Origin: Coptis chinensis
Lineage: Eukaryota > Streptophyta > Magnoliopsida > Ranunculales > Ranunculaceae
Direction of reading: 5' to 3'
NCBI GenBank assembly: GCA_015680905.1
Contig: CM027380.1
Span: forward strand, 38,432,001-38,496,000
DNA length: 64,000 nucleotides
The notes under the pieces are model-generated. The model was not told the DNA's origin. It saw only the letters and a list, made by a program, of their open reading frames with translations, and did not search any database. The position numbers and the translations under genes were made by a program. Shown piece after piece: positions 26,086-63,663 of the stretch. How positions within the stretch are numbered: the first letter of the stretch is position 1; each line of letters opens with the position of its first letter.

Positions 26086-26089
26086 TATA

Positions 26090-26122
<33 letters not shown>

Positions 26123-30036: not shown

Positions 30037-30333
30037 AAGTAAAGAACTCTTCCCTGGGGTAATTTGATTATCGAAACAAAATTCCCTGGGGTAATCATTG
30101 TGTATTTGGGGTTGTGTGAGATATGCGTATCTTTTGAATCAACAAAACTCTCTAAAAACTGTAGCCAAATAGCTTAATTCTATAAAATAAGAAAGGATGA
30201 TTGATGCGAAATCCAAAAGACAAAAACTGACTTGGTCCTAACCAAACTGCAATAAAAAAAATGAGAATTTTTTTTTTCCTAGAGTGCCACGTCAATTTCC
30301 TAAACACACCCAATTTGAACTTATATAGTGTCC
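30037..30333. other. Left flank of E2, including the probable Helitron 5' end
   Basis: The phrase ccctggggtaat is repeated at about 30051-30062 and 30083-30096. At about 30262-30300, tttttttcctagagtgccacgtcaatttcc resembles the Helitron-like starts elsewhere in the window (gagtccacgtcaaatttt at 8208). The last five bases, tgtcc, are the E2 target duplication. Confidence 0.45.
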
Positions 30334-31849
30334 TGATAAAGATAAAAATTGATAATTTTACTTATGAATAAAGCGATGAAACACTAAACGTAAGTAAACT
30401 AAAACTAATCTATGTGCCTATATTTTATCAAAGATTCTACTCTCAATCCTATGAGATATAGTGGAGTAGGAAGTTCGTTCCACTCCTAGTCCTTCCGCAT
30501 GTTAATGTTCTCTAAGTATAAGTACTTTTGACACTAAAGTCTAATGAGAGATTTACGAAGTGGCAACTAGACTACGATGCAACTACCCACAAGATGCAAT
30601 TAGTCGATTGTCAAAATAACTATGGTTATGCTACGTTGATTCGATGATAAGGAGTTAGAGGGGGATTGATTCCACCTTAACTCCACTTAATCCTATTAAC
30701 AACGAATCGTCGAAATCCGACTTGAATTGCTTCGCAGAACAATTGGTTCTTCCTAATCCCTAATTACACATGGCATTTCTACCAATTCATAATTAGCATG
30801 TGAATGATTAAACCCATTCTCATGGTAAACTAATCATTTCTAGAGTGGAAAGGAAATTACGACGACTCTACGATAATCGGAATCAAGCTTTCATCAAGGC
30901 TTCTTGACCCCCTCTAATGGAGGTTTAGCCGAGAATCATTACGCAATCATTTCCGATTAAAATAAAACTAAACATAATATAAAGAATTGAATTTACTAAT
31001 CTAAATTAAACAATAATTAAAATCTAATTAATAACTAAGAATTGAATAACAAGTAATAAATGAAATCAGATCTAACACAAATGTAAATGACAAGAATCGA
31101 AATTAACAAACTATTTTATTAATCAAACTAATTAAGAGTAATGATTCTAAGAGTTTATTCTAAAACAAGAATTGGATTTGAAACTAAACTTAATTAAAAA
31201 CAATTAAATCTAGATCTAGAAGCTATTCTAATGGCTACTTTCTATTCTAAGCTACTTTTATTTTCTAACCTCCTATCTACCATTAACAAAGAGCTAAGCT
31301 TTGGTTTTTATACTTTCAGATCCAAAAATCGTGCATGGGCTTGGAGCCATGGTTTGGGCCAGAGAATCAGGCCCAAAACCCAATTCTTTCGGTCCAAAAA
31401 GGCCTCTTCAGCTGCAGTTGGCTTCAACAGACTTTTCATCCACTTCTGCTCCTCTGATTGGATCACGGCTTAGACCATTGGAAAGCTCTTTCTGAGCTGG
31501 TCGTTTTGACATAAGATAGGCCCCATTCCGAGGTCTGAGTCCAAAGATACGGCCTTCGGAAGTTCTGCTGACTTGTGTGATGGTTCTGCCCGCGTCGACT
31601 TTTCAGCTTTTGACCGGGCTTTAGAAAGACTTTATCTTCTTGAAACTTGGCCTTTAATCACGGAACTCCTTAGTAACCAACCTTTGCTCCTTTATCTCGC
31701 TAAAGTGGCACATTTCTGCACATAATGGACTTTGAAGCCTGAAATGCATAAAAATACGTAATCAGTGTTAACTCTTAATTATTACTCACAATATTGGTCT
31801 AATAGTATGACTGTTAGAGGGTTAAAACTACAGTTTTGGGCTCTTATCA
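30334..31849 (-). repeat. E2 3' LTR (1,516 bp)
   Basis: Starts, on the minus strand, TGATAAGAGCCCAAAACTG and ends TTATCA. Nearly identical by eye to 41436-42956, with scattered single-base differences and a short indel. A TATA-like gtataaaaacc lies at complement 31303-31313. Confidence 0.95.
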
Positions 31850-33675
31850 AACCACCCCCAAACAGCATTTTGCTTGTCCTCAAGCAAAGATGAGATATTA
31901 GAATAAGTGACCAAAAATGGAGTTCTAACTACTCTCGTTTCGCTGAGTGCGATTGCATTGACCATATGCAACAAGGCCTTAAACCACTAGGAATTCCCTA
32001 GTGGACGAGTTATAGCCTCGTGAGAGTTTTCCAGTGAAAGTACTCACAAACTTCATCTATACTACAATGAATAAGAAATAAAACTATTGTTTCCTTATCC
32101 ATGCTCTAAATTAACTATACCTCTAACTAGCAATGCATATAGAGTAATCAAGTCGAAACCTAAGCTAATATATGCATAATAATCAATAATCTACAATAAC
32201 ATATATACAATGAGTAATACTATGAAATGCCTAGCAGGTCCGTTTCTGAAACTCGGAATAGCGTCCTTAAGTAGGTTCTCACAATAATAGTCAAGATACA
32301 ACACTCTGATTTTTCCACTCATGTTCATTTACTCCGATTAATGCGATGGGCACACTTTACCTTAAATCTCAATGACAACAAGGAAGCCGAGTCGATCAAA
32401 CACATCTGCCACTTACTATCACACTAACCTATTCCTAATTGAGCTAGAGGTCTTTAATAGGTGTTGCGGGGATTAGGGGATGGTTTAAGAAGGAAGGAAA
32501 TGGATATTCAAAAAAGACAAGTCTGAGATAATAGAGTTTTCAAATTATGTAACTTAGAGAAAACCTTGTTATTTTCTTTTGCTTCTATACTTTGTTTCCA
32601 TCCTTAGCCATATTTTTCTTTTTCTTTTCTTTGGCTTTTGACTCCCTTTTATTCTATTTTTGGAGTTTTTCTTTATTTCTATTTTTTTTTCTTTTCCTTG
32701 GATGGAAACTTCTTTTCTTTTTCTAAAGCAACTAACTAATTTTTGTTTACACAGGTTTTTCTCTTCTTCTTTCTTCACTCATTCTATTATCAGACTTATT
32801 CTAGATTGGGTAAGTTGAATTTTTTTATTTTGTTTTGTTTTTGTAACAGGGTAAAGGATTTGTGGTTTATGGAAGGCTAAAGAAAGGCTCAGAGGGGCGA
32901 CTAGCGGAAAATAATTCATCGGGTTGAATTTCTGGCTATATCGATCCAAAGAGGGCCTAAATTCTCGCTTAGGATATGGTTTAGTGATCAAGCAAGTGGA
33001 CGTGTGATTTCTCTATCCGGATTTTACTTCTCCCTCGTGTCATTTCTCAAATGTTTCGCTCATATAAGGCTTTAGGCTATATTCTCACAGGATTTGTAGA
33101 ATAAGTACTCTAGCCTAGATTTCAGAAACTTACTGCTAACAATCATAGATACTCATGTAATATATTTATAAATAGATGCAAAGATTATTATCTACATATT
33201 AACCTAAGTTTCTAACAATTATTCTAATGCAAAAGCTACGTGAGACTTCTAGATTGTTAAGAGCATAGAGAAAGAAAACAATACCACTATTCCTAAGTGT
33301 ATAGCATAACTTATTTATTTATATTTTTGAATTTTTGAAATTTTAACTAGAAGACAAATGCATATTATACATATCTATATCCTAACAGATGCCTTAATTA
33401 CACGTGTTTCTATGCCCCCCCCAAACAAGAAGCATGCTTTGTCCTCAAAGTATTGTAAATAAAAAGGGTAGGAAAAATACCATTGAAACGTGTGAAATTC
33501 AGGAACATCTGCAAAACAAAGTTAGAACGTACTAATATAGGAAATAAAACCGACGAACTCTATAACGAGTTCTACCCATTATGGGGTTAACAAGAATGAA
33601 ATTGCTTGGGACATAAGCGGACACTAACTAGAATGAAAACTTACCTTATCTCCCCGCGATTACTCATCATCTTCC
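31850..33675 (-). other. E2 3' noncoding module bounded by polypurine-tract-like motifs
   Basis: The terminal polypurine tract (complement of aaccacccccaaacagc) touches the LTR. A second copy with the same GAGGACAA companion lies at 33414-33450. Between them is sequence conserved in E1, E3 and E4, including a block around 32930-32980 (complement of atcgatatagccagaaattc) and a long A/T-rich tract. The small basic ORFs here come from low-complexity sequence. Confidence 0.75.
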
Positions 33676-34594
33676 TCATCCTCTTCTTCCATAAAGAAGT
33701 GAGGTTCCTTTAAGGCTGCCATGCCATGATAATTTGCCGGCTTCCCACCATTTATCATCTATTATTGCTAACCTATTAAGAGCCACTTGTGCGACAGGGT
33801 GTAGGGTGCAACCTGATGAGGTTGTATCCTCCACCCTTTGCCAAGTCATTACACGGAAGGATCGAATAATACTATTGGTGGGTCGCATGCGATTAATGTC
33901 GACCGTAATCCAATCCGTGAAACGTGTACAAAAAAATGGAAAGAAACATAGCATAATACGGAAACTAGAACAGGCATAAGAAGGAACTTATGCCTCATGC
34001 TATGGGATCGAGCTAAACTAGACATCAAGGTTCGGGAAGGTCATGACACATACGTCCCGAGTGGCTAAAGCAAGGAAAAACGCCGCAAGTGGCATCATTC
34101 ACGTAAGAAAAAAGCGCCATTCCCTAAAATGTTTAGCATGATCCAAAACATAACAGTTCCTATGTTCATGGACAAAGCTACCAAAAGCGGCGTTATAGTC
34201 CCCTTGGTCCTCGATATTTAAAATGCCCGCCCCCATACTGACTCATGCAAAACTCATAAGTGTAGACATACATATTATCTACCCAATAACACCATGGGTC
34301 TTGTATTTCAGCGGGCATAGCAATTCCAAGAACAAATGCTAGCAAGAACACGGTAATTTCCATTGGTTCATTATCAATGTTGATGGAGAACACTTGTTCT
34401 CCATCCGGTCTTTTAAAGAAAATGCGATTACCGTAAAAATAAGATGCTAGTGTTGGAGAATAAAGTGCATCGTCTTACCATAAGCGGCTCCCAACCAACG
34501 TATGTGATAAACGCCAGCGAAACCAAGCACCATAAGTAGTGCTTTGGAACAAATCTTCGAAAGACTGTTCCGGTATCAATGTTGGAGATGTCAT
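33676..34594 (-). pseudogene. E2 ORF4: conserved unrecognised ORF, decayed
   Basis: Starts at the ATG at 34592-34594 (MTSPTLIPEQSFEDLF) and can be followed through shifts and stops: DGEQVFSINIDN, YTYEFCMSQYGGG, a methionine- and arginine-containing stretch, then FTDWITVDINRMRPTN, IDDKWWEAGK and a final SLLYGRRG. The same order is readable in E3 at 55559-56440. No domain is recognised. Sharing between two elements whose other parts differ implies it was once a functional gene of this family. Upstream lies a TATA-like promoter and a GC-rich leader. Confidence 0.6.
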
Positions 34595-34900
34595 CTCAAA
34601 ATTACGCTCTGGAATAGCTGCGAATGATCCGGAAACTACCTGCAGAAAACTGGAATTTTTCAGGTCCACGGAAGTCAGGGCGCGAGTGCGCTCTCTTAGG
34701 GCGCGAGTGCGCTCTGAAGAATTGGAATTCCAGTGTTTGAGCGCGGGTTGCGCTCACACCACCTTGGCCGCGAAAAGGCCTCGACAAAAAACTGAAAAAA
34801 ATTGCGAGGCGAGTGCGCCGAGTTGCGTAAACTTCGGAAAATGAGGCAAAACATGGGATTCGTGGGAGTGAACGGTGAGTTATGGAGGTTAGGTGTATTG
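34595..34900 (-). repeat. GC-rich leader repeats before ORF4 (E2)
   Basis: The plus strand shows agggcgcgagtgcgctct twice in tandem (about 34676-34714), then a related gagcgcgggttgcgctc at about 34739-34756. The minus strand reads aacactggaattccaa between them. Similar gagcgcaacccgc and aacactggaa phrases occur in the RNA leader of E3 (46630-46690), and related motifs in the E2 leader. Confidence 0.65.
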
Positions 34901-34908
34901 TGAGTTGT

Positions 34909-34936
34909 GAGTGTAGAATGTATGAAGTTTATATAG
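34909..34936 (-). promoter_or_regulatory. TATA-like internal promoter upstream of ORF4 in E2
   Basis: The minus strand reads aaaacctatataaacttcat followed by acattctacactcac. A plant-type TATATAA box thus lies about 25-30 bases before a pyrimidine/adenine start-like sequence, and about 310 bases before the ORF4 ATG. The flanking block is also present in E1 (about 24745-24870) and E3 (about 55115-55240), where the TATA is altered (ctctaaaaac, ctatttaaac). Promoter function is inference. Confidence 0.5.
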
Positions 34937-35404
34937 GTTTTAAGTTGCTAAAACGGATCGGGAAGTTGCCAAAAGGTTTTTACGGCAGTTTCCGGAAATA
35001 CCAAATTTTCAAACCCGAAAACGGAAACAACTCATTTTCTTGATTCTAAAACAAACCTAGTATCTTTTAGGTTGAATTAATGATAGAATCTACCTATTTA
35101 ATCGATATTTCATCCTACCATGATACTTATTCATAGATATGCCTAAACGGCCATATTTTCACCTTGACTCCGCAATAAATTCTAAGACGAGGGTCATATA
35201 AAAATCATGCTGGAATAGATAAAACCACCCCCAAACAATTTGGGAAGGTGGGATCAATATTAAACAACCACGCATAATGAAAATAACCGCATTATATTAA
35301 AAATTTCATTCGAAGTACATTTCACTACAAAATTCAAATTACGGAAATAAAACTTACATGAAAATAAATGACAATAATGAAACTACAAATAAAAATAGAG
35401 CATC
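34937..35404 (-). other. E2 spacer between the env-like ORF and the internal promoter
   Basis: No ORF. Contains the sequence shared with E1 and E3 just upstream of the promoter block, and a further polypurine-tract-like motif at 35224-35240 (complement of accacccccaaacaatttgg). Confidence 0.6.
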
Positions 35405-36578
35405 AAACGATACTATCCCTAATCACTCCTGTACTGGTAGCGGAGGGCACACGCTTAGGAGATGGCTCCTGAGCTCCCGATGGGCCAGCACCATTCGTCC
35501 TTCGGCGACGACGCTCGTGCCTCGATGGTGTGTCCTCAGAAGGAGAGTCCCCGTGAGGTGGGAATCGTGCGAGCATGTCGGTCCGGAATTAGCGCTGAGC
35601 TTCTAGCTCGGCCCTCATCTGTTCCCACCTCTCATCCTCTCTCGGTAATGGATCTCGGTTATGATGGATAGTTGCCTGTCGAATCCGGAGGTCTTCACAG
35701 ATGGTGTTGAGCGAACGAATGCCACGATGAATTACGGCCATGCGTTCTGCGTCTGACCAGCACCTCTCCAGGGCATCCACATCAAAACAAGTCAAATCCT
35801 CCTCATCCTCCTCAGCATTCTCGTTTCCCCCATCTTCCTCAGCATTCTCATTTCCCCCATCATACTCCTTGTCCTCTACCCGATCCTCAGGCAACATTCA
35901 AACTCGTTGGACACACTCCTTATAGATGCGAGGGTTTCGGTGTAGGGTGATGTATGTCCTATCAGACGCCTGAGCTGCTCTCAACTTCAGCATGATCTTG
36001 GTTATCAACACAGGGAGAGGTGCAACAGACTTCCCTACTCCCCTAATCATGCTAAGTAAAAACTCCAAGATACAGAGCTGGTACTTCTGCTCCTGGAGTA
36101 ATTATAAGATGTGGAGGCAGTTCAGGCCGATGTCGCTGACCTTCTCCTTCCCCAGGATGTTCCGACCAATCCATCGAAATGCTGCGGCCGGTTGTTGGTC
36201 CTAAGATGCTGGGCGAACACAATGCGATCTCGCATTGTAGTTCCCTTCTGTAACCGTCACGTTCATCAATGGCTCTACCCCATTATATTGGGACTCCTGC
36301 AACATGACATCCAGATGGATTCTAGGCGGAATGCCTAGAATCTCAGCCAACAACCCCGTCGTCACTTCGTTCCTCCTCTTCGCCACCATAACAAAAATCC
36401 TAGTCCCTTCCAATTCCCTCGTATTGTAGAACTGTCGGACTAAGTCCTCGTGGTAATAGGCTTCAGTCGAGTACCACAAGCTATTCCAGTCTCTACTGAT
36501 CATTTCGTCATCGTAAAATGGCGCGAAGTGGTCACCAGTAAAAGCTTGCTCTGGCAAAATTCGACGTTGTTGAGCCAT
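35405..36578 (-). pseudogene. E2 env-like/third ORF (Athila type), interrupted
   Basis: Begins MAQQRRILPEQAF (ATG 36576-36578) and continues HFAPFYDDEMISRDWNSLWY, then LVRQFYNTRELEGTRIFVMV and LLAEILGIPP, the pattern seen in the ORF that follows integrase in Athila-type elements. After frameshifts near 36200 the frame resumes at 35897 with an acidic stretch containing a duplicated GGNENAEED. It then has a predicted coiled-coil region (RGIRSLNTICEDLRIRQ), a stop, and a basic tail (RHERRRRRTNG). No hydrophobic transmembrane segment is apparent. E3 carries the homologue at 53617-54765. Confidence 0.7.
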
Positions 36579-37631
36579 TTTAGTGTTTTGAATGTAGTGG
36601 GGGTTTAAATGGGATGTGGTGGTGGAATTTGTATCGACCGACTGAAGCAAACAGTGGTGGTGGCGCGACAGCACCAAAATTTTTAATTTAATTTGATTTT
36701 CCGGTGGTTTTTGTTGATGTAAATCGGTGTAGGGTGTGGGGCTCGCGGTTGAGTCGATTTGGTTGGGTCTTGATTATGGGCGGGTAAATTTAGTTTTCTT
36801 TTTAATTTTATTTTGTTTTAGGTTTTTGGAGCTTTGGTGGCGTTAATGGCGGTTTTGAGAAGATGATCGCGACTATTGGGCTAAGGTAAAAAGGCGAGTC
36901 TCGGTGGGCTGGTCAGGTTGCCCCAGCCCAATTCGAAATTTGTGAATTTTTTGATTTTTTCACGAAACTTCAAATCAAAATTGCCACTTCGTTACCGGTC
37001 CGATTTTTGCGAATGAGATATGGAAATGATCAGGAGAGAATTTCCAATCCAATGATCCATAAAACACTCTATTCCGACCGTGAATGACATATAAGATAGT
37101 ATAAAACGCCTCGAAGTGCGTGCATGATGTACGTTATGCGAACGACTGAACTCTAAATTCATAGATTATGTCAACCCGAATTGGAATACAATTAAACGGC
37201 CTAAGCAATTCTAATGGGACATAAAACATTTTAGGACGGAAACACGAACACCCCACCCCCAAACAAATTTTTTACAACGAAGCTTAGAAAATTTGTTTTT
37301 AGTAGTGGGTCTTTTAAAGTCAGATTCCCGAGACTTCCTAGAATACTATGTTTATTATTTAATATTTTTTTCTTTTATAAGGAAAAACAATAAGCAAGAA
37401 AGACATAATTCACCCCGTAGAGAAACATGACTCAAAAATCCGAGAAAAACATGCAAGAGTGGAAAACGTGAATTATGTTAATCGTGGACTTAGGATCCGG
37501 TACTTACAGCCACACACTCCGTAGGGAGGGCCAGGTTACCTTAATGGTGCACTCACCAATATATGGAAATGAAAGGAAATGCACCAAACACAAAAGTTGA
37601 GTCGTTTATAGTCAGATACTCGAGACTTTTT
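36579..37631 (-). other. E2 noncoding sequence before the env-like ORF
   Basis: No ORF. Corresponds to E3 at about 52610-53616: shared phrases include tggaaattctct, gatcatttcca and aatcggacc. A polypurine-tract-like motif lies at 37250-37266. A pyrimidine-rich stretch just before the ATG could supply a splice acceptor, but the site is not certain. Confidence 0.6.
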
Positions 37632-38423
37632 CTAAACATATGTATGAACATACAGTTTATCATATATCAACAACCGAAATAGTTGTGGATCATTCCATAA
37701 ATAAATATCACAAAAAACATATCCAAACACAATCAAGCACCAAGATTTCCTATGACGCAACCTAGAAAAATGAAAGCGAAGTCGGATAACCCTATTACTT
37801 AACCTAGCATGCACCTTCTTTTTCATTTTTGAACGAGAGGGTGTCCTAGTGAATAAGTGTGGAAGAGTGAATGGTTGTGTAGAATATGGTGGATATGGGT
37901 AAGTTGTAGAAGGAAAACATGGAAAAAATGAGGATGTGGGTTTAGCACAAAACTCATTCATAGTGTAGGTAGGGACTGTCTCAAGTCTGAAAATAAAGGT
38001 GTCAAACGCTTTTGTCTTCTGAAGTATTTGTTTTCTAGGTGAATTTAAAAAATTATAAAACACAGAAGAAACAACCGGATCGAGTGCAAACTCGAGATTC
38101 CTTTGAAAGGGTGGAAGGAGGGGAGTCGAGGTGGATGTTGTGCAAAGTAGTTCTTGATAGGGTGAATCATCACCTGCTCTAAGAAACTCATCGAATTGCT
38201 CATCTAGATTGGTCATATCCTCGTTACTATGATAGTCCTCTACATCTTTGAGAAAGTCATCTATCTCATCCTCATCCGTAATATGTGTATCGACTAGTGT
38301 AGGGATGGAAATGTTGGAGTCTGAACTTCCAAAGGAAAGAAATTTGGGAATATGATTATCAGGGAACGTGTTGTTGAAATAATCTCGAGCAAAGCTCTCG
38401 ATCATGCTAACCTTTCCATCCAT
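37632..38423 (-). CDS. E2 pol-replacing ORF (263 codons), unrecognised
   Basis: Open reading on the minus strand after the protease, starting MDGKVSMIESFARDYFNN. The first 30 or so residues match the protease-RT linker of E3 (KIESLAQDYFNN). Beyond FLSFG the two part: E3 goes on into RT, while E2 has an acidic stretch (DEDEIDDFLKDVED), then PPFQRNLEFALDP, a serine/proline/tyrosine-rich part, a basic part (SKMKKKVHARLSNR) and a hydrophobic stretch ending near DPQLFRLLIYDK. E4 has a related ORF in the same place. There is no enzyme motif. Being open for 263 codons in otherwise decayed surroundings is notable. Function unknown. Confidence 0.6.
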   Translation of the reverse strand: MDGKVSMIESFARDYFNNTFPDNHIPKFLSFGSSDSNISIPTLVDTHITDEDEIDDFLKDVEDYHSNEDMTNLDEQFDEFLRAGDDSPYQELLCTTSTSTPLLPPFQRNLEFALDPVVSSVFYNFLNSPRKQILQKTKAFDTFIFRLETVPTYTMNEFCAKPTSSFFPCFPSTTYPYPPYSTQPFTLPHLFTRTPSRSKMKKKVHARLSNRVIRLRFHFSRLRHRKSWCLIVFGYVFCDIYLWNDPQLFRLLIYDKLYVHTYV

Positions 38424-38471
38424 AGATAGCGAATCGGGTAATCGCGTGTCTTTGTTTTAAAAACATTGACT

Positions 38472-39065
38472 TCAACAAAGAAGATGGCCAAAAGACATGG
38501 ACATTGAACCGTCGCGGCAATTAATGAGCGCATTGGCAGTTGCTAGGAAAGGACGCCCTAAGATGATCTGGACAGAGTTGTTAACGACTTCTGTATCGAG
38601 GATGACAAAATCAGCCGGATAGTAGAAATCCTGAATTTTTACCAGAACATTTTCGATGACACCCTTAGGATACTTAATAGACCGATCAGCTAATTGCAAC
38701 GTCATTTTAGTGGGTTGCATCTCGTCTAGACCTATTTGTCTATACAAATAAAACGGGAGTAAGTTAACACTAGCCCCCAAGTCTAATAACGCGGTCGTCG
38801 TATAAGAATCTCCTAAGGTGCATTGTACAGTAGGACGACCAGGGTCCTTGTACTTAACAATTCCATTATGTTCAGATAAAGTTGGGAATTGTTCTGTTAA
38901 AAAGGCGGCTTTTGGTATATTGGTCTTACGCCTAGTAGTACACAATTCCTTAAGAAACTTAGCATGGTGTGGTAGCTTTTTAATAGCTTCGAGGAAGGGA
39001 AGGTTTATAGTTAGATTCTTGAAAACATCCCTAATCTCCTCATAATTTGTATCCCAAGTTAACAC
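38472..39065 (-). pseudogene. E2 aspartic protease region
   Basis: Minus-strand reading of 197 codons with the gag-pro linker (FLEAIKKLPHHAKFLKELCT, then RKTNIPKAAFLTEQFP), the protease active site LLDLGASVNLLPF, then TLQLADRSIKYP and VQIILGRPFLATANALINC. The domain itself is open from about 39065 to 38472 and might once have been active. The frame to gag upstream is broken. E3 at 48590-49180 and E1 have the same domain. Confidence 0.88.
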
Positions 39066-39533
39066 GGCTAATTTTTGTGGAAACGGTGGTTTCGTCTATA
39101 TTTAGCAATGGTATCACCCTGGATGTTTAACCATGGCTTTCGTTTCTTAGGTTGTGTTGTGTAACCGGTACCTCTACGATTGGTAGGCTCTTCAGTTTCT
39201 ATTTTTCATTATCTAGTAAAATAGCGGTGTAGGGGTGATCGTGGGGTAACTATAGGCATAGTTGCTTTGTTATCAACCACTCTGCCCGAAGCGGAGAGTG
39301 GTGATGGCCTTTAGCTCACCTACATTTTCATATTCATTACTAGTATTATCGGTTACCTCAAAGGCTGTATTTGTTGTTTTAGGATTAGGTATTTAAGTGA
39401 CTTGGAAACACACCTTTGGGTTGGGCTTTATCTTGAGCCAACCTGTTGGGTTAAATTATTAACGGATTGTAGAAGCCGCTGGTTAGATTGAGCCATGGTT
39501 TGGAAAAGTTTTTGGCTTACTTGTATGAAGGTG

Positions 39534-40764
39534 TCAAGACAATCCGTTGTGTGTGGGTGTAGTAGTCACGGGTGGTGTGATTGGAACTATTTCACATGAA
39601 TTATTTATGGGTGGATTTTGATAGTTATTATTTACCGAAACGATACCTCTATTAGCAATATAATTATTATAACTACCTTGACTTTGTGCTTGACCTTGTC
39701 GAGGTTGCATTTGGTTGTTATAATTATTAAAATTACCCTGACCCTCGCCCTTGTCGTGGTGGAGCTTGGTTAAAACTTTGTGTTGGCCTAACATATTGAT
39801 TATTGTACCCTGGAGGTGTGACGTGTTGGTTATTTCTCCAACCGAAGTTGGGATTTTGTCTCCAAGGGGCGTTAGGTTCACTATTAATGGAACAAGCCTG
39901 TTCATAGGCAATAGGACAGTGGGAGTCGGGATGCTCAGGGCTCCAACAGAAACTACATGGATTTGAATTTATGTTCATGACGGGGATAGGCTTTTGTTGA
40001 ACAGAAATGGCCTCTACCTTTTTAGTGAGTGATTTGATTAGAGTTTTAAGCTCGGGATCGTGTTTAATTTCAAACATACCAAATGGCCTTAATCAGTATT
40101 TGATGAACTAAGCGGAGCGATGGATATCATCACTACCCCCCAGTTGTTATTTAAGCTTTAGTTTGATCCTCTAAAAATTTATAAGCCTCCTCGAGGCTCC
40201 TTTGCTTAAGAAACTACCCCATTCATTATGTCTAGGACTTCTTTATGGTGGTGTAGAAGTCCTTTGAAAAAGGCAAGAACTAACGTGTCTTTCGCTAAGT
40301 TATGATGTGGACACTCTATAAGGAGATCGGTGAAACAATTCCAAGCCTCTGAAAATGTTTCATGAGGATTTTGTCGAAAAAAATGAATCTTGGAAAGCAT
40401 CTCATCCGTCTTTAGGGGTGGGTAAAAATGTTCCATAAATAGCTGAACAAGTTTAGCCCACGAGTCCACAGAATTAGGCGTTTGGGCAATTAACCAAGAC
40501 GCCGCCTTATCGGCTAAGGTGAAAGGGAATACCCTGAGTTTAATTTGTTCCGCACCAACCGTAGGATGGTGGAATGTTGTTAGGACTTGTTCAATCCTAC
40601 GCATGTGCTGATAAGGTTTTTCATGGTCTAATCCATGAAAAACGGGTAACAAATTAAAAATATTTGGGGATTCGAAATCCCCACTCGGGTCTAGAACGAT
40701 GCAAGATTTAGGGCTATCGCCAAGGCTTTGTAGAAGTCGAGAGAGGAGTCTCTTCTTCGGGCAT
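39534..40764 (-). pseudogene. E2 gag with zinc knuckle, interrupted
   Basis: From about 40764 (MPEEETPLS) the frame shifts near 40680 to the gag core at 40652-40206: LPVFHGLDHEKPYQHMRRIE, LRVFPFTLADKAASWL, LFMEHFYPPLKTDEML, FRQNPHETFSEAWN. Stops and shifts follow. At 40077-39733 a CCHC knuckle is intact (CSFCWSPEHPDSHC: C-x2-C-x4-H-x4-C), then a Q/N/G-rich tail with repeats of NNYNNQ type. E3 carries the same core at 47129-47680. Confidence 0.85.
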
Positions 40765-41416
40765 TGTGTCAGGTGATGTGTGTGAAATAGTAGCTAGAGG
40801 TGTAGTGGGTGGTATACTAGATAGACTTATTTGTTGACGTTGTTGTGTAATTACGTTCGGTGTTTTTGTTCGGCCATACCTTAATCTCATACAAGGCTAA
40901 AACCAAATTTAGCTAAACACATCAACACTCCAAACAATTCTGATACACTAGTATAAACCTCTAACAGGAGATGCGAGGTGCGGAAGAAAGGAATACCTGA
41001 TTGCGTCCTTGCTTCGCTTATGAATAGCGTCTTGTTTACGCGTATTCAGTGTATATAACAAGTTAGAACACTGAAAAACTTGAAAAATCAAAGTTCGAGT
41101 CAAAACTGTAGAATTCCAGAAAAATTAGCAAAGGCGGTGCTCTCTCATAGAAGCGCCGATCGCTCCGTGTAATTTTCAAATTACAGTGTTTTTAGGGTGG
41201 TCCCAGCCACACAGGTTCGGGTCAAAAAAGCTCAAGGTTCCAGCTATAGGCGGTGTGCTCATTTCTTCCTTGAGCTGGTGCGCTTCGGTAATTTCTCGCT
41301 GAAATTTTCAACGATGAAACGGAAAAACCACAGTATGAATCAAACACGGGTGGGTGGGTGAAATGGGACTTTAAGAAAAGTACTTACACTATGAAAACAA
41401 TGCGAAAGTGCAACTA
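40765..41416 (-). other. E2 leader between primer site and gag
   Basis: Noncoding leader of the element RNA. It contains GC-rich phrases (gagcgatcggcgctt, gaagcgcaccagctc on the minus strand) and aacactgtaatttgaaa, resembling those before ORF4. No ORF. Confidence 0.6.
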
Positions 41417-41433
41417 AGATGGCAGCGGCGCCA
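41417..41433 (-). other. E2 primer binding site (tRNA-Asp-like)
   Basis: The minus strand reads TTATCA, aa, tggcgccgctgccatct; the first 13 bases match the tRNA-Asp-type primer site apart from one change. The two-base spacer (aa) is the same in E3. Confidence 0.82.
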
Positions 41434-41435
41434 TT

Positions 41436-42956
41436 TGATAAAGATAAAAATTGATAATTTTACTTATGAATAAATCGATGAAACTCTTAACGTAAGTAAA
41501 CTAAAACTAATCTATGTGCCTATATTTTATCAAAGATTCTACTCTCAATCCTATGAGATATAGTGGAGTAGGAAGTTCGTTCCACTCCTAGTCCTTCCGC
41601 ATGTTAATGTTCTCTAAGTATAAGTACTTTTGACACTAAAGTCTAATGAGAGATTTACGAAGTGGTAACTAGACTACGATGCAACTACCCACAAGATGCA
41701 ATTAGTCGATTATCAAAATAACTATGGTTATGCTACGTTGATTCGATGATAAGGAGTTAGAGGGGGATTGATTCCACCTTAACTCCACTTAATCCTATTA
41801 AAGACGAATCGTCGAAATCCGACTTGAACTGCTTCGCAGAACAATTGGTTCTTCCTAATCCCTAATTACACATGGCATTTCTACCAATTCATAATTAGCA
41901 TGTGAACGATTAAACCCATTCTCATGGTGAACTAATCGTTTCTAGAGTGGAAAGGAAATTACGACGACTCTACGATAATCGGAATCAAGCTTTCATCAAG
42001 GCTTCTTGACCCCCTCTAATGGAGGTTTAGCCGAGAATCATTATGTAATCATTTTCGATTAAAATATAACTAAACATAATATAAAGAATTGAATTTACTA
42101 ATCTAAATTAAACAATAATTAAAATCTAATTAATAACTAAGAATTGAATAACAAGTAATAAATGAAATCAGATCTAACACAAATGTAAATGACAAGAATC
42201 GAAATTAACAAACTAGCTATTTTATTAATCAAACTAATTAAGAGTAATGATTCTAAGAGTTTAATCTAAAACAAGAATTGGATTTGAAACTAAACTTAAT
42301 TAAAAACAATTAAATCTAGATCTAGAAGCTATTCTAATGGCTACTTTCTATTCTAAGCTACTTTTATTTTCTAACCTCCTATCTACCATTAACAAAGAGC
42401 TAAGCTTTGGTTTTTATACTTTCAGATCCAAAAATCGTGCATGGGCTTGGAGCCATGGTTTGGGCCAGAGAATCAGGCCCAAAACCCAATTCTTTCAGTC
42501 CAAAAAGGCCTCTTCAGCTGCAGTTGGCTTCAACAGAATTTTTCGTCCACTTCTGCTCCTCTGATTGGATCACCGCTTAGACCTTTGGAAAGCTCTTTCC
42601 GAGACGGTCGTTTTGACATAAGATAGGCCCCATTCCGAGGTCTGAGTCCAAATATACAGCCTTCGGAAGTTCTGCTGACTTGTGTGATGTTTCTGCCCGC
42701 GTCGACTTTTCAGCCTTTGACCGGGCTTTAGAAAGGCTTTGTTTTCTTGAAACTTGGCCTTTAATCACGGAACTCGTTAGTAACCGACCTTTGCTCCTTT
42801 ATCTCGCTAAAGTGGCACATTTCTGCACATAATGGACTTTGAAGCCTGAAATGCATAAAAACACGTAATCAGTGTTAACTCTTAATTATTACTCATAATA
42901 TTGGTCTAATAGTATGACTGTTACAGGGTTAAAACTACAGTTTTGGGCTCTTATCA
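41436..42956 (-). repeat. E2 5' LTR (1,521 bp)
   Basis: Pairs with 30334-31849. A TATA-like gtataaaaacc lies at complement 42409-42419. Followed on the plus side by the target duplicate tgtcc (42957-42961). Confidence 0.95.
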
Positions 42957-43095
42957 TGTCCACTTTTTCCTAAACTCTTACACCGATATAAGTTTAAAAA
43001 CTTAGAAATTAATACATATTCTATATTCTTTATCTCCAGTTCACGTAGTTTACAATAAATCTTCATCACATTCATCTTTATCCCTCTCTTCCTCC

Positions 43096-44954: not shown

Positions 44955-46427
44955 TGATAAGAGCCCAAAACTGTAGTTTTAACCCTGTAACAGTCATACT
45001 TTTAGACCAATTATGTGAGTAATAATTAAGAGTTAACACTGATTACGTGTTTTTATGCATTTCAGGTTTCAAAGTCCATTATGTGCAGAAATGTGCCACT
45101 TTAGCGAGATAAAGGAGAAAAGGTCGGTTACTAAGGAGTTCCGTGATTAAAGGCCAAGATTCAAGAAGACAAAGCCTTTCTAAAGCCCGGTCAAAAGCTG
45201 AAAAGTCGACGCGGGCAGAAACAGCACACAAGTCAGCAGAATTTCCGTAGGCCGTATCTTTGGACTCAGACGTCGGAATGGGACCTACCTTATGTCAAAA
45301 CGACCGGCTCGGAAAGAGCTTTCCAATGGTTTAAGACTTGACCCAATAAGAGGAGCAAAAGTGGACGAAAAGTCTATTGAAGACAACTGCAGCTGAAGAG
45401 GGCTTTTTGGACTGAAAGAATTGGGTTTTGGGCCTGATTCTCTGGCCCAAAACATGGCTCCAAGCCCATGCACGATTTTTGGATCTGAAAGTATAAAAAC
45501 CAAAGCTTAACTCTTTGTTAATGGTAGCTAGTTAGACCTAAAAAATATATATAATTCTAGATCTAGTTTTCAGTAGAGTAATTAAGTTTAAGTTCCAATT
45601 TCAATTCTTGTTTTAGATTAAGTCTTGAATCATTGTTCTTGATTGATTAGATAAATAAAATAGTTATTTTTATCAATTTCGATTTTTGTCATTTCAATTT
45701 ATAGATCTAATTTTAATTCTTGTTGATTATCATTTTGTAGTTTAAGTAGATTGAAACATTGTTAGTTAAATTAGTTAAGTTAGAATTTTAATATGATGTG
45801 TAGTTATAATTCAATGGGAAATGATGGGTTGATAACTCAAGGCTAAAACCTCCATTAGAGGGGTTGATGAAGCCTTGATGAAAACTTAGTGGTATAGTGT
45901 AGACGCGTTGTAGAATCTATTCCACTCTAGAAGGTCTTGATTCGCCATGAGAATGGGTGGACGACCTCACATGCTAGTTAGTATTTGGTAGAGATGCCAT
46001 GAACACTAGGGATTAGAACTCGAAATTCTTGCCGTAAAAACGTGAGAATTTCGAGATACAAGAATCTATGCTAGGTTATTAAGTTGGATTCGAGGTGGAT
46101 TCAATTCCCTTCTAATCCTTTATCTAGATTAAAAAACAATCATATTTCCATAGCATTCGTAGTTTAAATTCAACATAATCAATTTTATATTGTATCGTAG
46201 TATAACACCCTTCGTAAAGCTCTCATTAGACTTAAGACCGATTAATTAGATTAGAAAACATTCCATGCTAGAGAACTAGGAGTGGAACGAATTTGTTACT
46301 CCACTCTATTTCGAAAGAATTGAGAGTAGAAACTTTGATAAATATAGACACGTAAATAGTTTTAGTTTACTTACGTTTTGAGTTCATCGTTCATTTCGTA
46401 GATAAATTATTCATTTTATGTTTATCA
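44955..46427 (+). repeat. E3 5' LTR (1,473 bp)
   Basis: Starts TGATAAGAGCCCAAAACTG and ends TTTATGTTTATCA; nearly identical by eye to 58307-59783. A TATA-like gtataaaaacc lies at 45491-45501. The first 550 bp or so match the LTR of E2 and E4; the rest does not closely match E4. Confidence 0.95.
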
Positions 46428-46429
46428 AA

Positions 46430-46446
46430 TGGCGCCGCTGCCATCT
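46430..46446 (+). other. E3 primer binding site (tRNA-Asp-like)
   Basis: tggcgccgctgccatct, two bases (aa) after the LTR end, identical to the E2 site. Confidence 0.82.
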
Positions 46447-47063
46447 TAGTTTCACTTTAGCATTGTTTTCATAGTATAATTAGTCATTTTTAAGTCCCAT
46501 TAAACCCACCCACCCTTGTTTGATTCATACTGTGGTTGTCCGTTTCAGCGTTGAAAAGCTCCTCAAAAATATACACGCTGACGATCATCGCTTCCTATCC
46601 GGCGCATTCTACCAAAAAGCCTAGAACCTTGAGCGCAACCCGCCCGAAAACACTGGAACTTCAAGTTACACTGAGCGACCATTCTAAGTGAAGCGCACCC
46701 GCATACTAAGCTAAATTTTCCGATTTCTACAGTTTGTTTTGAACTTCAATTTTTAAGTTTTTCAGTGTTCTAACTTGTTATTTACACCTTTGAACACACG
46801 TAAACAAGACACTATTCATAAGCGAAAGCAAGGACGCTTATCGTATTCCTTTCTTCCATACCTCGCATCTCCAGTTAGATGTTTATACTAAAATATCAAG
46901 ATTGTTTGGAGTGTTGTCGTGTTTAGACTTAGACTTGCATGAGATTAAGGTGCAGTCGGACAAAACACCGAACGTAATTAACCGTCGGCGTCAACAAACA
47001 AATCTATCGAGTATACCAATCACTACACCTCTAGCTACTATTCCACCAACCACACCTGACATA
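46447..47063 (+). other. E3 leader
   Basis: Noncoding leader before gag. It contains gagcgcaacccgccc (about 46630) with aacactggaacttcaa, and gaagcgcacccgc (about 46690), the GC-rich phrases also found before ORF4. Confidence 0.6.
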
Positions 47064-48491
47064 ATGGCTGAAGAAAGAGAGACTCCTCTCTCCGATTTTT
47101 ACAAATCCTTGAGCGATAGCCCTAAATCTTGCATCGTTCTAGTAGCGAGACCCGGTGGGGATTTTCGAATTCCCCAAACATATTTAATTTGTTACCCGTT
47201 TTCCATGGTTTAGACCATGAAAAACCTTATCAACACATGCGTAGGATTGAACAAGTCCTTACAACATTCCATCATCCTACGGTTGGTACGGAACAGATTA
47301 AACTGAGGCTATTTCCTTTCACCTTAGCCGATAAGGCATCGTCTTGGTTAACTGCCCAAGCGCCTAACTCTGTGGACTCGTGGGCTAAACTTGTTCAGCT
47401 GTTTATGGAACATTTTTACCCACCCCTAAAGACGGATGAGATGCTTTCCAAGATTCATTTTTTCCGACAAAATCCTCATGAATCATTTTCTGAGGCTTGG
47501 AATCGTTTCACCGATCTGCTTATAGAGTGTCCACACCATAACTTAGCAAAAGACACGTTAGTTCGTGCCTTTTTCAAAGGACTTCAACATCACCATAAAG
47601 AAGTCCTTGACATAATGAATGGGGGTAGTTTCCTAAGTAAAGGAGCCTCGAGGCTTACAAATTTTAGAAGATCAAACTAAACGAAATAACAATTGGGGGG
47701 TAGTGATGATATCCCCCGCTCTGTTAGTTCTTCTTCAACAGTTAAGGCCGCCGGTATGTTTGAGATGAAACCCGATCTAGAACTTAAAAATTTAATCGAA
47801 TCTCTAAATAAAAAGGTTGAGGCTATTTCTTACAGCAACAAAAGCCTATCCCCGTCATGAATGTCAACTCCAACCCATGTAATGTCCGTTTGAGTCCCGA
47901 GCACCACTGAATCTTATTGTCCTCTAAGCCTATGAACAACAACAATTAGAGCAAGACAATGTTTGCTCCATTAATAGCTATCCTATTCCTAATGCCCCAT
48001 GGAGACAACATCCCAACTTTAGTTGGCTTAAACAATCAACAAGTTTCACCTCCGGGGTTCAATAACCAAAATGTTAGGCAAAAGCAAACAACTATAATCA
48101 AGCTCCACCTAGGCAGGGACGGGGACAAAGTCAGGGAAATTATAATAATTATAACAACCAAGCACAACCACAACAAGGTTTAGCACAAGGTCAGGGTAAT
48201 TATAATAGTTATAATACCAATAGAGGTATCATTCCGGTTAACAATAGTAACTATCACAACCCACCCATAAATAATCAGCAGAGATAGTTCGGTCGCACCA
48301 CCGTGACTACTACACCATCACATCTGGATCGTATAGACGCCTTTATACAGGTTACCCAACAACTTTTCCAATCAATGACTCAATCAAACCAACAGATCTT
48401 ACAATCCATAAATCAGGGCATACAACAGTTAGCCCAAGAGAAAGCCCAACCAAAAGGCGTGTTTCGGGACAAAAGCGATACCAAACCTTAA
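47064..48491 (+). pseudogene. E3 gag, interrupted
   Basis: Begins MAEERETPLSDFYKSLS at 47064; a shift near 47140 leads to the core frame (47129-47680: LPVFHGLDHEKPYQHMRRIE, LFPFTLADKASSWL, HFYPPLKTDEMLSKIH). The zinc-knuckle region near 47870-47920 is broken (serine/proline/glutamate/histidine remain but the cysteines are displaced). The Q/N-rich tail is readable to 48491 with shifts (QSMTQSNQQILQSINQGIQQ). Confidence 0.85.
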
Positions 48492-48589
48492 AACAAAGAA
48501 ACCACACCTTTGAGGTAAACGGTAATACTAGTACGGAAACTACAATCGTAGGTGACCTTAATGCCATCACCACTCTCCGCTCTGGAAGA

Positions 48590-49408
48590 GTGGTTGATAA
48601 CAAAGTAACTATGCCTATAGTTACCCCATCAGTACTCCCTACACCGGATATCGAACTAGATACCGAAGTAGAAACTGAAGAGCCTACCACTGTAGAGGTA
48701 CCAGTTAAACAACAAACAAAGAAACAGAAAGCCAAGGTTACACATCAAGTCGAGCCATACGCTAAATATAGAGCGAAACCACCATTCCCTCATAAGTTAG
48801 CCATGCTAACTAGGGATACAAACTTTGAGGAGATTAGGAACGTTTTCAAGAATCTAACGATAAACCTTCCTTTTCTCGAAGCTATTAAAAAGCTACCTAA
48901 CCACGCTAAGTTTCTTAAAGAGTTGTGCACTACTAGGCGTAAGACCAACATACCTAAAGACGCCTTTCTAACTGAACAGTTCCCAACTTTATCCGAAAAT
49001 AATGGAATTGTTAAATACAAGGACCTTGGTCGTCCTACTGTAAAATGCACCTTAGGAGATTCCCACACGACGACCGCTTTATTAGACCTGGGGGCGAGTG
49101 TTAACTTACTCCCGTATTACTTGTATAAACAAATAGGTCTACAGGAAATGCAACCTACAAAAATAACGCGTTGCAATTAGCGGACAGTCAATTAAGTATC
49201 CTAAGGGTGTAGTGGAAAACGTGCTTGTTAAGGTTCGGATTTTTACTATCTTGCTGATTTTGTTATCCTCGATCTGAGGTCGTCAACTAACGACTCTGTA
49301 TGCCGATCATCTTAGGGTGCCCCTTCTTGGCAATTGCCAACGACTTATAAATTGCGCGATGGTAAGATGTCCTTATCTTTTGGCCATCTTACGGTTGAGG
49401 TAAATGTT
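48590..49408 (+). pseudogene. E3 protease region
   Basis: 48590-49180 includes the linker FLEAIKKLPNHAKFLKELCT and active-site LLDLGASVNLLPY, then a shift after MQPTKIT (about 49165). The rest of the domain is traceable only in pieces to 49408 (ILGCPFLAI-like and a final LSFGHLTVEV-like stretch). A near copy of the E2 protease. Confidence 0.85.
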
Positions 49409-49413
49409 TTAAA

Positions 49414-51487
49414 ATGATGAAACAGTTACCAGATTCGTCTATAGATGGGGAGGTTAGCAAGATCGAGAGCTTAGCTCAAGATTATTTTAACAACACGTTT
49501 CCCGAAAACAATATGTACAAATTCCTTTCTTTTGGAATTTCAGATTTTGTAAATGACTCCTACTTAGAGGAAGTCAACACCATCCTTGAGTCCACACTAA
49601 TTGTAGACCCTTCGGTTGCTCCATATATTGAATATGAAGACTTGCTACCTAAGCAAGTATTCATTATGCAAAATGAGGACCCTGACGAAACATCTATTGA
49701 TTTTCCTTCCACCCCAGTGCTTAAACCTCTTCCCCCGGAGTTAAAATATATTCAACTTGATCCGGATGGTAATCATCCGATAATTATATCTTCTCTGTTA
49801 TCTAAGAATGAAGAGACACGTTTAATTCGGGTGATTAGGGAACATCGGTCGGCGATTGGTTGGTCCCTAGCCGACATTAAGGGAATTGACCCTAATGTTT
49901 GCACTCATCGTATCCATTTGGAGGATAACGCGAAGACTTCTCGTGAACCTCAGCGTCGCTTGAACCCTACCATGAAAGAGGTGGTTAGGGAAGAAGTCTT
50001 ACGATTACTCGATGCGGGTATCATATACCCAATCTCTGATAGCGAATGGGTAAGCCCCATTCATGTAGTTCCTAAGAAATCGGGAGTTACCATGGTACAT
50101 AATGGGAAGGGTGACTATGTTATCACACAAGGTCTTATGAAATGGAGGATCTGTATTGATTATAGACGTTTAAATGCTATGACATGAAAGGATCACTTTC
50201 CATTACCTTTTATAGATCAAATGCTCGAACGCCTAGCTAGTCATGCTTTTTATTGTTTTCTGGATGGCTACTCAGGCTATTTTCAGATTATTATTGATAT
50301 TGATGACCAAGAAAAGACTACCTTCATATGTCCCTTTGGAACGTATGCCTATAAATGAATGCCTTTTGTCCTTTGTAATGCTCATGGTACCTTCCAGCGG
50401 TGTATGCTTCATATATTTAGTGACATGGTAGAGCACTTTATGGAAGTTTTCATGGATGATTTTTCTATCTATGGAGACTCCTTCACAGACTGTTTGTCTA
50501 ACCTGTCTAAGGTTTTGACGGTGTGAAGAAAAGAGCCTCGTTTTAAACTGGGAAAAGTGTCATTTCATGGTGAAAAAGGGCATAGTACTAGGTCACATCG
50601 TATCTAGTGATGGCATCGAAGTAGATAAGGCCAAACTAGATAAAATAGTGACCCTACCTAAACCACGGACTGTCCGTGATATTAGAGCCTTTCTAGGCCA
50701 TACAGGTTTTTATAGGCGATTTATTAAAGACTTCTCGAAAATAGCTAGGCCTTTCACTAATCTGCTTTTGAAAGATGCAATCTTTGATTTTAATTTTAAC
50801 TGTACGCAGGCTTTTGAAACTTTAAAAGCCGCCCTAACCTCTGCACTAATTATACAGCCTCCCGATTGGTCTAAACCTTTCGAACTCATGTGTGATGCTA
50901 GTGACTATGCAGTTAGTGCAGTCTTGGGACAAAAACTAGATAATAAGTCCACTGTTATTTATTATGCTAGTAAAACCTTAAACGATGCTCAACGGAATTA
51001 TTCAACTACCGAAAAAGAATTCTTAGCTGTCATTTATGCTTTAGATAAGTTTCGTCCTTATCTTGTTGGTTCTAAAACTTTAGTTTACACGGACCATGCA
51101 GCCCTTAAGTACCTTCTTGCAAAGAAGGATGCTAAGCAGAGATTAATCCGATGGATCCTTCTCCTACAAGAGTTCACATTAGAAATAAAGGACAAAAGAG
51201 GGGTCAAAAACGTAGTTGCCGACCACTTATCTAGACTCACAAACGACGATCAGAGTGATTTTGAGTCCATACCGGACTATTTTCTTGATGAGCATCTGTA
51301 TGCGATTTTTTCAGCACCATGGTATGATGACATTGTAAATTATTTAGCAGCTGATGTTATGCCTTATAATTGGTCAAGAAATGAACGTAAGAAGTTCTTG
51401 GCCAAAGTTAAGTTATACTATTGGGATGAGCCATACCTTTTTAAGTATTGTGCGGATCAGATTATTCGTCGTTGTATTCCCCAGTGA
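49414..51487 (+). pseudogene. E3 reverse transcriptase and RNase H
   Basis: 49414-50187 holds the linker and the N-terminal RT (WVSPIHVVPKKSG, RICIDYRRLNAMT), ending at TGA 50185-50187 where CGA (Arg) is expected. The palm continues with FLDGYSGYFQ, FGTYAYK, another TGA at 50356-50358, then VFMDDFSIYGDS. A shift near 50525 precedes the frame 50567-51487, which holds the end of RT ([20 protein letters not shown]) and RNase H ([15 protein letters not shown], tail [10 protein letters not shown]). The catalytic aspartates are still visible, but the two premature stops and the shift abolish the product. Confidence 0.9.
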
Positions 51488-63234: not shown

Positions 63235-63645
63235 TTATGGAAGATACGTAGGATGTGGATAATTTTGAGAAGGAAAAAATGGAAAAAATGAAAATGTGTC
63301 AGGTGGCTTGTCCTTGGGTGTTATTTCTTCACCAGTTGGTTTTAGATAGTTATGAAGCATAGGAGAAATGCCAAGGTCAAGTACAAACTCAATGGTTCTT
63401 TGAAAAGGTAGAGGGCGAGGAACATTCGTGATGGAAGGTGAATGAGTGACATGAGGATGTGAGGTGGGTGAATGGTGTTCAACTAGTGTTCTTAGGTCTA
63501 TATCATCAGAGGCCTTGAGATATGCAAGACATTCCTCAATAGGTGGGTAAGAAGAATCACTGGGATAGAGGGCGAAAAATTCTTCTTCCGTCATGGCGTC
63601 AAGAGATGAATGGATGTCAATAGGAGAGAACTCGCGAGGTGGCAA
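63235..63645 (-). CDS. E4 pol-replacing ORF, second part
   Basis: 136-codon minus-strand reading beginning MPPREFSPIDIHSSLDAMTE. The portion PRPLPFQRTIEFVLDLGISP and HNYLKPTGEEITPK corresponds to PPFQRNLEFALDP and YNFLNSPRKQI of E2. It is preceded by a stop (end of 63664-63939) separating it from the protease frame. Proline- and acid-rich; no enzyme motif. Function unknown. Confidence 0.55.
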   Translation of the reverse strand: MPPREFSPIDIHSSLDAMTEEEFFALYPSDSSYPPIEECLAYLKASDDIDLRTLVEHHSPTSHPHVTHSPSITNVPRPLPFQRTIEFVLDLGISPMLHNYLKPTGEEITPKDKPPDTFSFFPFFPSQNYPHPTYLP

Positions 63646-63663
63646 ATAAGGGTTGCAAAAGAG

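What the first reader, a model, noticed from the sequence alone, without database searches (positions are those of the whole stretch)
37632..38423. Family of gag-protease elements (E2, E4) with a new ORF in place of RT, RNase H and integrase
Seen: E2 and E4 share LTR U3, protease and 3' module with E3, but straight after the protease both switch to an ORF with no RT motif. The two replacements are related (PPFQRNLEFALDP in E2, LPFQRTIEFVLDL in E4) although each copy differs elsewhere, and E2's is open for 263 codons. Known: non-autonomous LTR elements that keep gag exist in plants. Inference: a lineage that swapped its enzymes for a retained protein of unknown role, mobilised by E3-type relatives.
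Basis: partly seen in the sequence, partly recalled or inferred. Interest (0 to 1): 0.78.

Follow-up and report, generated by a model that had tools for sequence, protein, structure and literature searches.

The report
Plant retroelement family missing its enzymes
This is a common plant jumping element that has lost its copying and inserting enzymes but kept its shell protein, protease and an extra protein tail of unknown role; it probably moves by borrowing enzymes from a close relative, a lifestyle already known from other plant elements.

Summary
E2 (30334-42956, minus strand; LTRs 97% identical; perfect 5-bp target-site duplication) has gag and protease, then a frame (ORFx) with no relative found. 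In E2, 722 nt of ORFx stand where E3 has 3,064 nt of RT, RNase H and integrase; E4 carries a diverged ORFx. ORFx continues the protease frame, and its first 46 codons match E3's protease-RT linker. The genome (935.6 Mb) holds many copies: 141 scored matches of E2-type ORFx and 40 near-full-length E4-type matches. In 32 of 32 E2-type and 30 of 30 E4-type loci the protease lies 148-166 nt upstream of ORFx on the same strand, with no pol detected within about 1.5 kb. ORFx was probably translated once: its length far exceeds shuffles, and E2-type copies keep its stop codon (47 of 51). Protein-level selection is weakly supported (pooled p=0.04; not significant in either family alone), and frame-keeping of E2-E4 gaps depends on the aligner. 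Best reading: non-autonomous Athila-type families, mobilised in trans by E3-type relatives. Wheat RLG_Quinta (GAG plus unknown domain) and pol-less Arabidopsis Athila families are close precedents. New member of a known kind.

The parts
30334..42956 (-). E2, a non-autonomous Athila-type LTR element with both LTRs
   Evidence: LTR pair 97.3% identical, K2P 0.0242, about 0.9 My at an assumed 1.3e-8 per site per year; TSD TGTCC on both sides
30329..30333 (.). Left target-site duplication TGTCC
42957..42961 (.). Right target-site duplication TGTCC
41436..42956 (-). E2 5' LTR
30334..31849 (-). E2 3' LTR
41421..41433 (-). E2 primer binding site TGGCGCCGCTGCC, same as in E3
31852..31863 (-). E2 polypurine tract GTTTGGGGGTGG next to the 3' LTR
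40206..40793 (-). gag core frame of E2; neighbouring gag sequence is frameshifted in this copy
   Evidence: Pfam PF03732 E=2.4e-17; frames
38472..39095 (-). E2 aspartic protease frame
   Evidence: Pfam PF13650 E=1.1e-5
38320..38456 (-). Protease-RT linker shared with E3, start of the 274-codon frame
37632..38319 (-). ORFx: tail in place of RT, RNase H and integrase, ending in a TAG kept in 47 of 51 other copies
37598..37643 (-). Repeat motif, copy 1, at the end of ORFx
37352..37597 (-). Spacer homologous to the sequence just after the E3 pol stop
37306..37351 (-). Repeat motif, copy 2 (one copy found in E3 at 52887-52921 and in E4 at 62959-63003)
36201..36773 (-). Downstream extra-ORF region, partly homologous to E3 53631-54194
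   Evidence: only a weak Pfam hit (DUF2336, E=0.27, below cut-off)
62995..63680 (-). E4 ORFx, diverged relative; this copy has two stops
60182..60903 (-). E4 3' LTR portion alignable with E2; the LTR probably ends near 59795, and E4 runs past the window end
   Evidence: the end is my reading
44955..59783 (+). E3, autonomous-type relative; this copy is broken
   Evidence: LTRs 97.2%; RT_RNaseH PF17917 E=1.5e-38; frames
49545..52608 (+). E3 RT-RNase H-integrase stretch that E2 lacks and that was not found beside ORFx in E4-type loci

Best explanation
E2 and E4 belong to two high-copy, non-autonomous Athila-type LTR retrotransposon families. They carry gag, protease and the ORFx tail, and no RT, RNase H or integrase beside it. 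Shown: this architecture and its repetition across the genome, a perfect TSD for E2, and a PBS and LTR start identical to E3 with a near-identical PPT. Inferred: their RNAs are packaged with Pol from E3-type elements, copied and integrated in trans, while they supply Gag and protease. ORFx was probably translated as the tail of the polyprotein, at least in the past. The cassette spans from the protease-RT linker to the pol stop codon and fits template-switch recombination; who gave it to whom is unresolved. The role of ORFx is unknown; my guess is a disordered accessory tail that helps the element use a partner's enzymes or RNA packaging.
For: E2 replaces 3,064 nt of E3 pol by 722 nt between two colinear blocks. 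Perfect TSD; shared PBS and LTR start; PPT differing by one G; 589 nt spanning U3 94% alike. Own genome: 40 of 40 scored DNA matches at 96-100%, 141 of 141 scored protein matches at 88-100% identity with at least 255 of 274 residues covered, 40 near-full-length E4-type matches. Protease 148-159 nt upstream of ORFx on the same strand in 32 of 32 E2-type loci and 158-166 nt in 30 of 30 E4-type loci, and 0 pol protein hits at E<=1e-3 in the 62 loci; E3 pol DNA absent too. TAG kept in 47 of 51. Free of stops and frameshifts: 17 of 39 DNA-chosen E2-type copies over codons 11-274 and 12 of 30 E4-type copies over codons 58-280. 7 of 31 flanked loci hold the protease motif and the ORFx end in one open frame. 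E3-type pol is also high-copy: 40 scored DNA and 124 scored protein matches.
Against: Selection on the protein is weak. Singleton versus shared variants: E2-type DNA-chosen p=0.36, all 51 p=0.12, E4-type p=0.19, pooled p=0.039; with a cut of 5 copies p=0.51. Pairwise omega 0.44 and 0.46, but redistributed substitutions reach that in 55 and 249 of 1000, and another frame scores as low (0.39 antisense). Codon-position mismatches are flat (29/28/30). Frame-keeping of E2-E4 gaps looked like 5 of 5 on a trimmed stretch, but over the whole of ORFx it is 6 of 6, 5 of 7, 4 of 7, 6 of 6 and 6 of 6 under five aligner settings, with most gaps in poorly alignable sequence. Over the whole 275-codon frame only 3 of 30 E2-type copies showed neither stop nor frameshift relative to E2, because many indels fall in codons 1-10 where E2 itself looks damaged (21 of 30 from codon 11). 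No test of trans-mobilisation was possible; E3 itself is broken and I saw no TSD. Of two further copies sampled, one has a 4 of 5 TSD match and the other's 3' LTR ran off the stretch.
Confidence: 0.72

Rival explanations
1. The same non-autonomous families, but ORFx is no longer, or never was, a useful protein: a neutral stretch left in frame that spreads passively.
For: Flat codon-position mismatches; singleton-versus-shared tests not significant family by family; frame-keeping of gaps depends on the aligner; no domain, homolog or confident fold; many E4-type copies have stops and frameshifts.
Against: Open length far beyond shuffles; the frame relation between E2 and E4 is the same at the starts of the three blastn blocks (my reading); stop codon kept in 47 of 51; pooled shared variants poorer in nonsynonymous changes (p=0.039).
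Confidence: 0.28
2. ORFx is a decayed remnant of pol: the protease-RT linker joined to integrase by deletion of RT and RNase H.
For: YLW(N/K)DPQLFR in both copies resembles YYWDDPYLFK upstream of the integrase zinc finger (ranks 17 and 20 of 2006 sequences, 2000 of them shuffles). A Papaver protein and an unnamed one show protease-linker joined to the integrase C-terminus (P0206, P0228).
Against: The profile scores are about 4 bits, below the best shuffle at 7.5; the linker profile ranks E4 92nd and E2 772nd of 4002; tblastn with E1 and E3 pol pieces finds nothing better than E=0.32.
Confidence: 0.1
3. ORFx is a captured host gene fragment or an unrelated inserted transposon.
For: No similarity to E1 or E3 pol and none found elsewhere, so an outside source is possible.
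Against: Two diverged families carry it just downstream of the protease in 62 of 62 loci examined. The repeat search of 37250-38480 shows no inverted repeat with arms at the two ends of the segment. No protein at E<=1 among 300 word-sharing candidates.
Confidence: 0.08

Closest known systems
RLG_Quinta (partner RLG_Cereba), einkorn wheat (PMC11302176, abstract and passages seen)
   Same: Non-autonomous LTR element whose single ORF encodes GAG plus a domain of unknown function (DUF1), without RT and integrase; shares PBS, LTR ends and PPT with an autonomous partner; recombination between lineages.
   Different: Centromeric family; the passages seen give no protease; the DUF1 sequence was not at hand, so homology with ORFx is untested.
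Pol-less Arabidopsis Athila families (Marco and Marin 2008, PMC2410132; parts 1, 2 and 4 of 6 and passages seen)
   Same: Athila families with gag or gag plus env and no pol, replicating for up to about 2 My, with gag under purifying selection (omega about 0.2-0.4), proposed to be mobilised in trans and recombining with pol-bearing families.
   Different: The word protease does not occur in the main text and the parts seen describe no extra domain. Some gag ORFs there are long (family Va, 2808 nt); I did not pursue what they encode.
RLG_Sabrina_SA, wheat (PMC9744471, passages seen)
   Same: Semi-autonomous element with GAG and protease and no RT or integrase.
   Different: No extra tail in the SA form in the passages seen; other variants carry unique short coding segments instead of GAG-Pro.
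TR-GAG elements (PMC8704663, passages seen)
   Same: LTR element keeping gag; one observed to transpose in Arabidopsis ddm1.
   Different: A single ORF for GAG only; the reported mover is Copia.

Membership tests
Athila lineage (OTA Ty3/gypsy) | No additional archaeal-type RNase H (aRH), which marks Tat (PMC6317226, passages seen) | tested here: met
   No second RNase H Pfam match in the E1 and E3 frames scanned; limited because E3 frames are broken. E2 and E4 lack pol, so this rests on E3 and E1.
Athila lineage (OTA Ty3/gypsy) | RT tree placement | not tested
   No tree was built. The best database hit of the E3 RNase H frame is unnamed (69%); named hits are plant proteins, e.g. Persea 65%, Vitis 64%.
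Athila lineage (OTA Ty3/gypsy) | Athila ORF-1 domain pfam03078 (found in 16% of Athila, PMC6317226) | tested here: not met
   No match in the ten frames; the domain is optional, so not decisive.
Quinta-type semi-autonomous partner elements | ORF with GAG but no RT or integrase, plus a domain of unknown function | tested here: met
   (gag, protease); 62 of 62 loci without a pol hit in about 1.5 kb either side of ORFx
Quinta-type semi-autonomous partner elements | Same PBS, LTR ends and PPT as an autonomous partner | tested here: met
   E2 versus E3; the E3 PPT has one G fewer and the base before the last seven of the LTR differs
Quinta-type semi-autonomous partner elements | Functional GAG supplied in trans | not testable with these tools
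   Sequence only; the window copy of gag is broken
TR-GAG | Single ORF for GAG only | tested here: not met
   E2 also has protease, ORFx and a downstream extra-ORF region

The most novel reading that the evidence does not exclude
ORFx is a selected accessory protein, orphan in the searches made here, fused to Gag-protease in place of Pol in two old, high-copy Athila families. It actively helps these elements capture the enzymes or packaging of E3-type partners, so that loss of pol was an adaptive trade rather than decay.
Probability: 0.18. Interest if true: 0.65.

Novelty: new member of a known kind. Interest (0 to 1): 0.42.

Why it matters
It adds a case in the Athila lineage in which a pol-less element keeps gag-protease and an extra unknown domain, next to the GAG-DUF1 design of wheat RLG_Quinta. 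Two diverged ORFx families and a high-copy pol-bearing relative in one genome make it possible to test, by sequence and transcripts alone, whether such tails are selected and whether pol-less and pol-bearing families are co-active.

Tried and rejected
Pol-remnant reading: profiles of the RNase H-integrase linker (97 database proteins) and of the protease-RT linker (9 database proteins plus E3), and tblastn of E1 and E3 pol pieces, gave nothing beyond chance-like scores. A first profile was invalid because it contained P0001 itself; it was rebuilt without it. An early idea that E2 alone arose by inserting an E4-type cassette into an E3-type element was weakened: 2 of 30 E4-type loci also match the E2 spacer and 7 extra motif rows appear, so the motif-spacer-motif order may be older than E2. 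The protease piece favours E2 with E3 (1903 of 2000 bootstraps on 165 columns), which conflicts with shared ORFx and points to recombination somewhere.

Structure prediction of ORFx failed (mean pLDDT 40), so no fold search was run. PDB by sequence: nothing below E=2.9. Viral-contig scan: 3 pattern hits, none confirmed. Literature search for 'gag-protease' with five other terms: 0 papers.

Full report
What is there. The window lies at C4:38432001-38496000 of an unnamed 935.6 Mb genome and holds several LTR elements. The best database hit of E3's RNase H frame is unnamed; named hits are plant proteins. E2 (30334-42956, minus strand) has LTRs of 1516 and 1521 nt at 97.3% identity, K2P 0.0242, about 0.9 My at an assumed 1.3e-8 per site per year (rate recalled), and a perfect TGTCC target-site duplication. 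E3 (44955-59783, plus) has LTRs at 97.2%; I saw no TSD. E4 (minus) runs off the window at 64000.

The observation. E2 is colinear with E3 from the 5' LTR through gag and protease to 38320 (79.6%). It then carries 722 nt without detectable similarity to E3 pol, and is colinear again from 37597, which pairs with 52609, the last base of the E3 pol stop codon. E3 has 3,064 nt of RT, RNase H and integrase in that interval. The E2 frame 38456-37635 is open for 274 codons, 263 from ATG 38423; its start matches the E3 protease-RT linker at 71% over 42 residues. It shares the frame of the protease, with two stops between them in this copy. In E4 the corresponding frame runs on from the protease, with two stops. 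ORFx is therefore a tail of the gag-protease frame.

Is it coding? 38320-37635 stays open for 228 codons, which 0 of 2000 dinucleotide shuffles reach. On a stretch trimmed at E2 38300, E2 and E4 ORFx (63% identical) differ by 5 gaps, all multiples of three, under five MAFFT settings, against 1 of 29 gaps in the 3' module of the same pair. That stretch left out the badly alignable start; over the whole of ORFx the same five settings give 6 of 6, 5 of 7, 4 of 7, 6 of 6 and 6 of 6, and most of the gaps sit where local identity is about 0.45-0.6. The frame relation is the same at the starts of the three blastn blocks, although one block has frame-changing gaps within it. NG86 omega is 0.44 (100 codons) and 0.46 (39 codons), but redistributing the same substitutions reaches those values in 55 and 249 of 1000 trials, another frame scores as low, and mismatches by codon position are flat.

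Copies in the genome. DNA search with E2 ORFx: 40 scored of 3184 first-look candidates, all 96-100%. Protein search: 141 scored of 22926, 88-100% identical with at least 255 of 274 residues covered; 92 of 141 have no stop inside (my count of the table), with open frames up to 817 aa. E4 ORFx: 40 near-full-length matches at 96-100% plus 7 rows of a second motif copy. E3 protease-RT junction: 40 scored of 5342 at 96-100%; E3 RNase H: 124 scored of 27879. These are lower bounds by the tool's own statement. I checked 32 E2-type loci (window copy included; 30 protein-chosen and 2 DNA-chosen) and 30 E4-type loci. Protease lies 148-159 nt upstream of ORFx on the same strand in 32 of 32, and 158-166 nt in 30 of 30; E1 and E3 RT, RNase H and integrase pieces find 0 hits at E<=1e-3 in the 62 loci, which span about 1.5 kb either side. 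Spacer and downstream region are present in 31 of the 32; in L021 the spacer breaks off into other sequence.

Selection across copies. In 51 E2-type copies other than the window one, the ORFx TAG is kept in 47 and the other 4 have a deletion there. Of 39 DNA-chosen E2-type copies (39 of the 40, window included), 25 have no frameshift, 24 no stop and 17 neither over codons 11-274. Of 30 E4-type copies 12 have neither over codons 58-280, and 10 over codons 1-280. Counted over the whole E2 frame only 3 of 30 copies have neither, because indels crowd codons 1-10 where E2 itself looks damaged. Singleton variants: E2-type 45 synonymous, 107 nonsynonymous, 4 stops; E4-type 33, 92, 9. Variants in at least 3 copies: E2-type 24, 38, 1; E4-type 7, 12, 0. 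One-sided Fisher p: 0.12, 0.19, pooled 0.039; DNA-chosen E2-type alone 0.36; with a cut of 5 copies 0.51. The direction fits purifying selection during spread; the support is weak. Median identity to E2 is 96.5% for ORFx, 94.6% gag-protease, 94.6% spacer, 89.2% the downstream region (31, 31, 30 and 30 loci), but loci were chosen by ORFx similarity.

What ORFx is. No Pfam match, no convincing PDB relative, no confident fold (mean pLDDT 40). No protein at E<=1 among 300 word-sharing candidates from 5.8 billion (only proteins 0.55 to 1.75 times its length are candidates). A search with protease plus ORFx returned 881 proteins; the 120 listed cover at most 41% of the query region, and ORFx codons 47-274 against those 120 give nothing better than E=2.1. 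Profiles and tblastn do not make it a pol remnant. The conserved YLW-DPQLFR string is the only hint.

How it likely moves. E2 shares with E3 the PBS, the LTR start and the PPT (E3 has one G fewer). A 589-nt stretch spanning U3 is 94% alike (150-nt windows 88-96%), while the rest of the LTR is about 69-85%. The perfect TSD shows E2 was integrated normally although it lacks integrase, so enzymes came from elsewhere; E3-type elements are the obvious source (inference). The patchwork of identities between E2 and E3 (gag core 92-95%, flanks 80-87%, 3' module mostly 92-97% with dips to 83-86%) and the conflict between protease similarity (E2 nearer E3, 1903 of 2000 bootstraps on 165 columns) and shared ORFx point to recombination, as expected if RNAs share particles.

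What is known. Marco and Marin (PMC2410132; parts 1, 2 and 4 of 6 and passages seen) describe pol-less Athila families with gag under purifying selection, trans-mobilisation and recombination. RLG_Quinta encodes GAG plus an unknown domain and is paired with RLG_Cereba by PBS, LTR ends and PPT (PMC11302176, abstract and passages). RLG_Sabrina_SA keeps GAG-Pro (PMC9744471, passages). A TR-GAG element has been seen to transpose (PMC8704663, passages). The present families are a further member of that kind, in the Athila lineage, with a tail I could not match. I did not see these particular families in the six literature searches made, which cover open-licence papers only and used general terms; I saw only listings for most of the papers.

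Noticed in passing
31852, 33415, 35225, 37253 (E2); 60906, 62482, 62640, 62871 (E4); 52952 (E3): The polypurine-tract string GTTTGGGGGTGG recurs inside the elements: 10 places in the window within one mismatch against 0.18 expected (the tenth is 25569, beyond E1 pol). Several follow a small hairpin (CTTTGAGGACAAAG or CTTGAGGACAAG). Possible extra plus-strand start sites.
   Followed up: partly
30334-31849, 41436-42956, 44955-46427, 58307-59783: LTRs are mosaic: the U3 side is 88-96% alike between E2 and E3 while the rest is about 69-85%; the adjoining 2-kb 3' module is mostly 92-97% alike.
   Followed up: partly
40155-40743: A gag-core patch is 92-95% identical between E2 and E3 inside flanks of 80-87%: strong constraint or recent recombination.
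   Followed up: no
P0206 and P0228: A Papaver protein and an unnamed protein join a protease-RT linker directly to the integrase C-terminus: Athila-like deletion derivatives elsewhere.
   Followed up: no
9740-15303, minus strand: Frames with DUF4283, endonuclease/exonuclease/phosphatase, RT and RNase H domains: a LINE-type element.
   Followed up: no
16838-28857: E1, a second pol-bearing element of Athila type (RT, RNase H, integrase core), LTR K2P 0.0336, with LTRs that did not align with those of E2 or E3.
   Followed up: no
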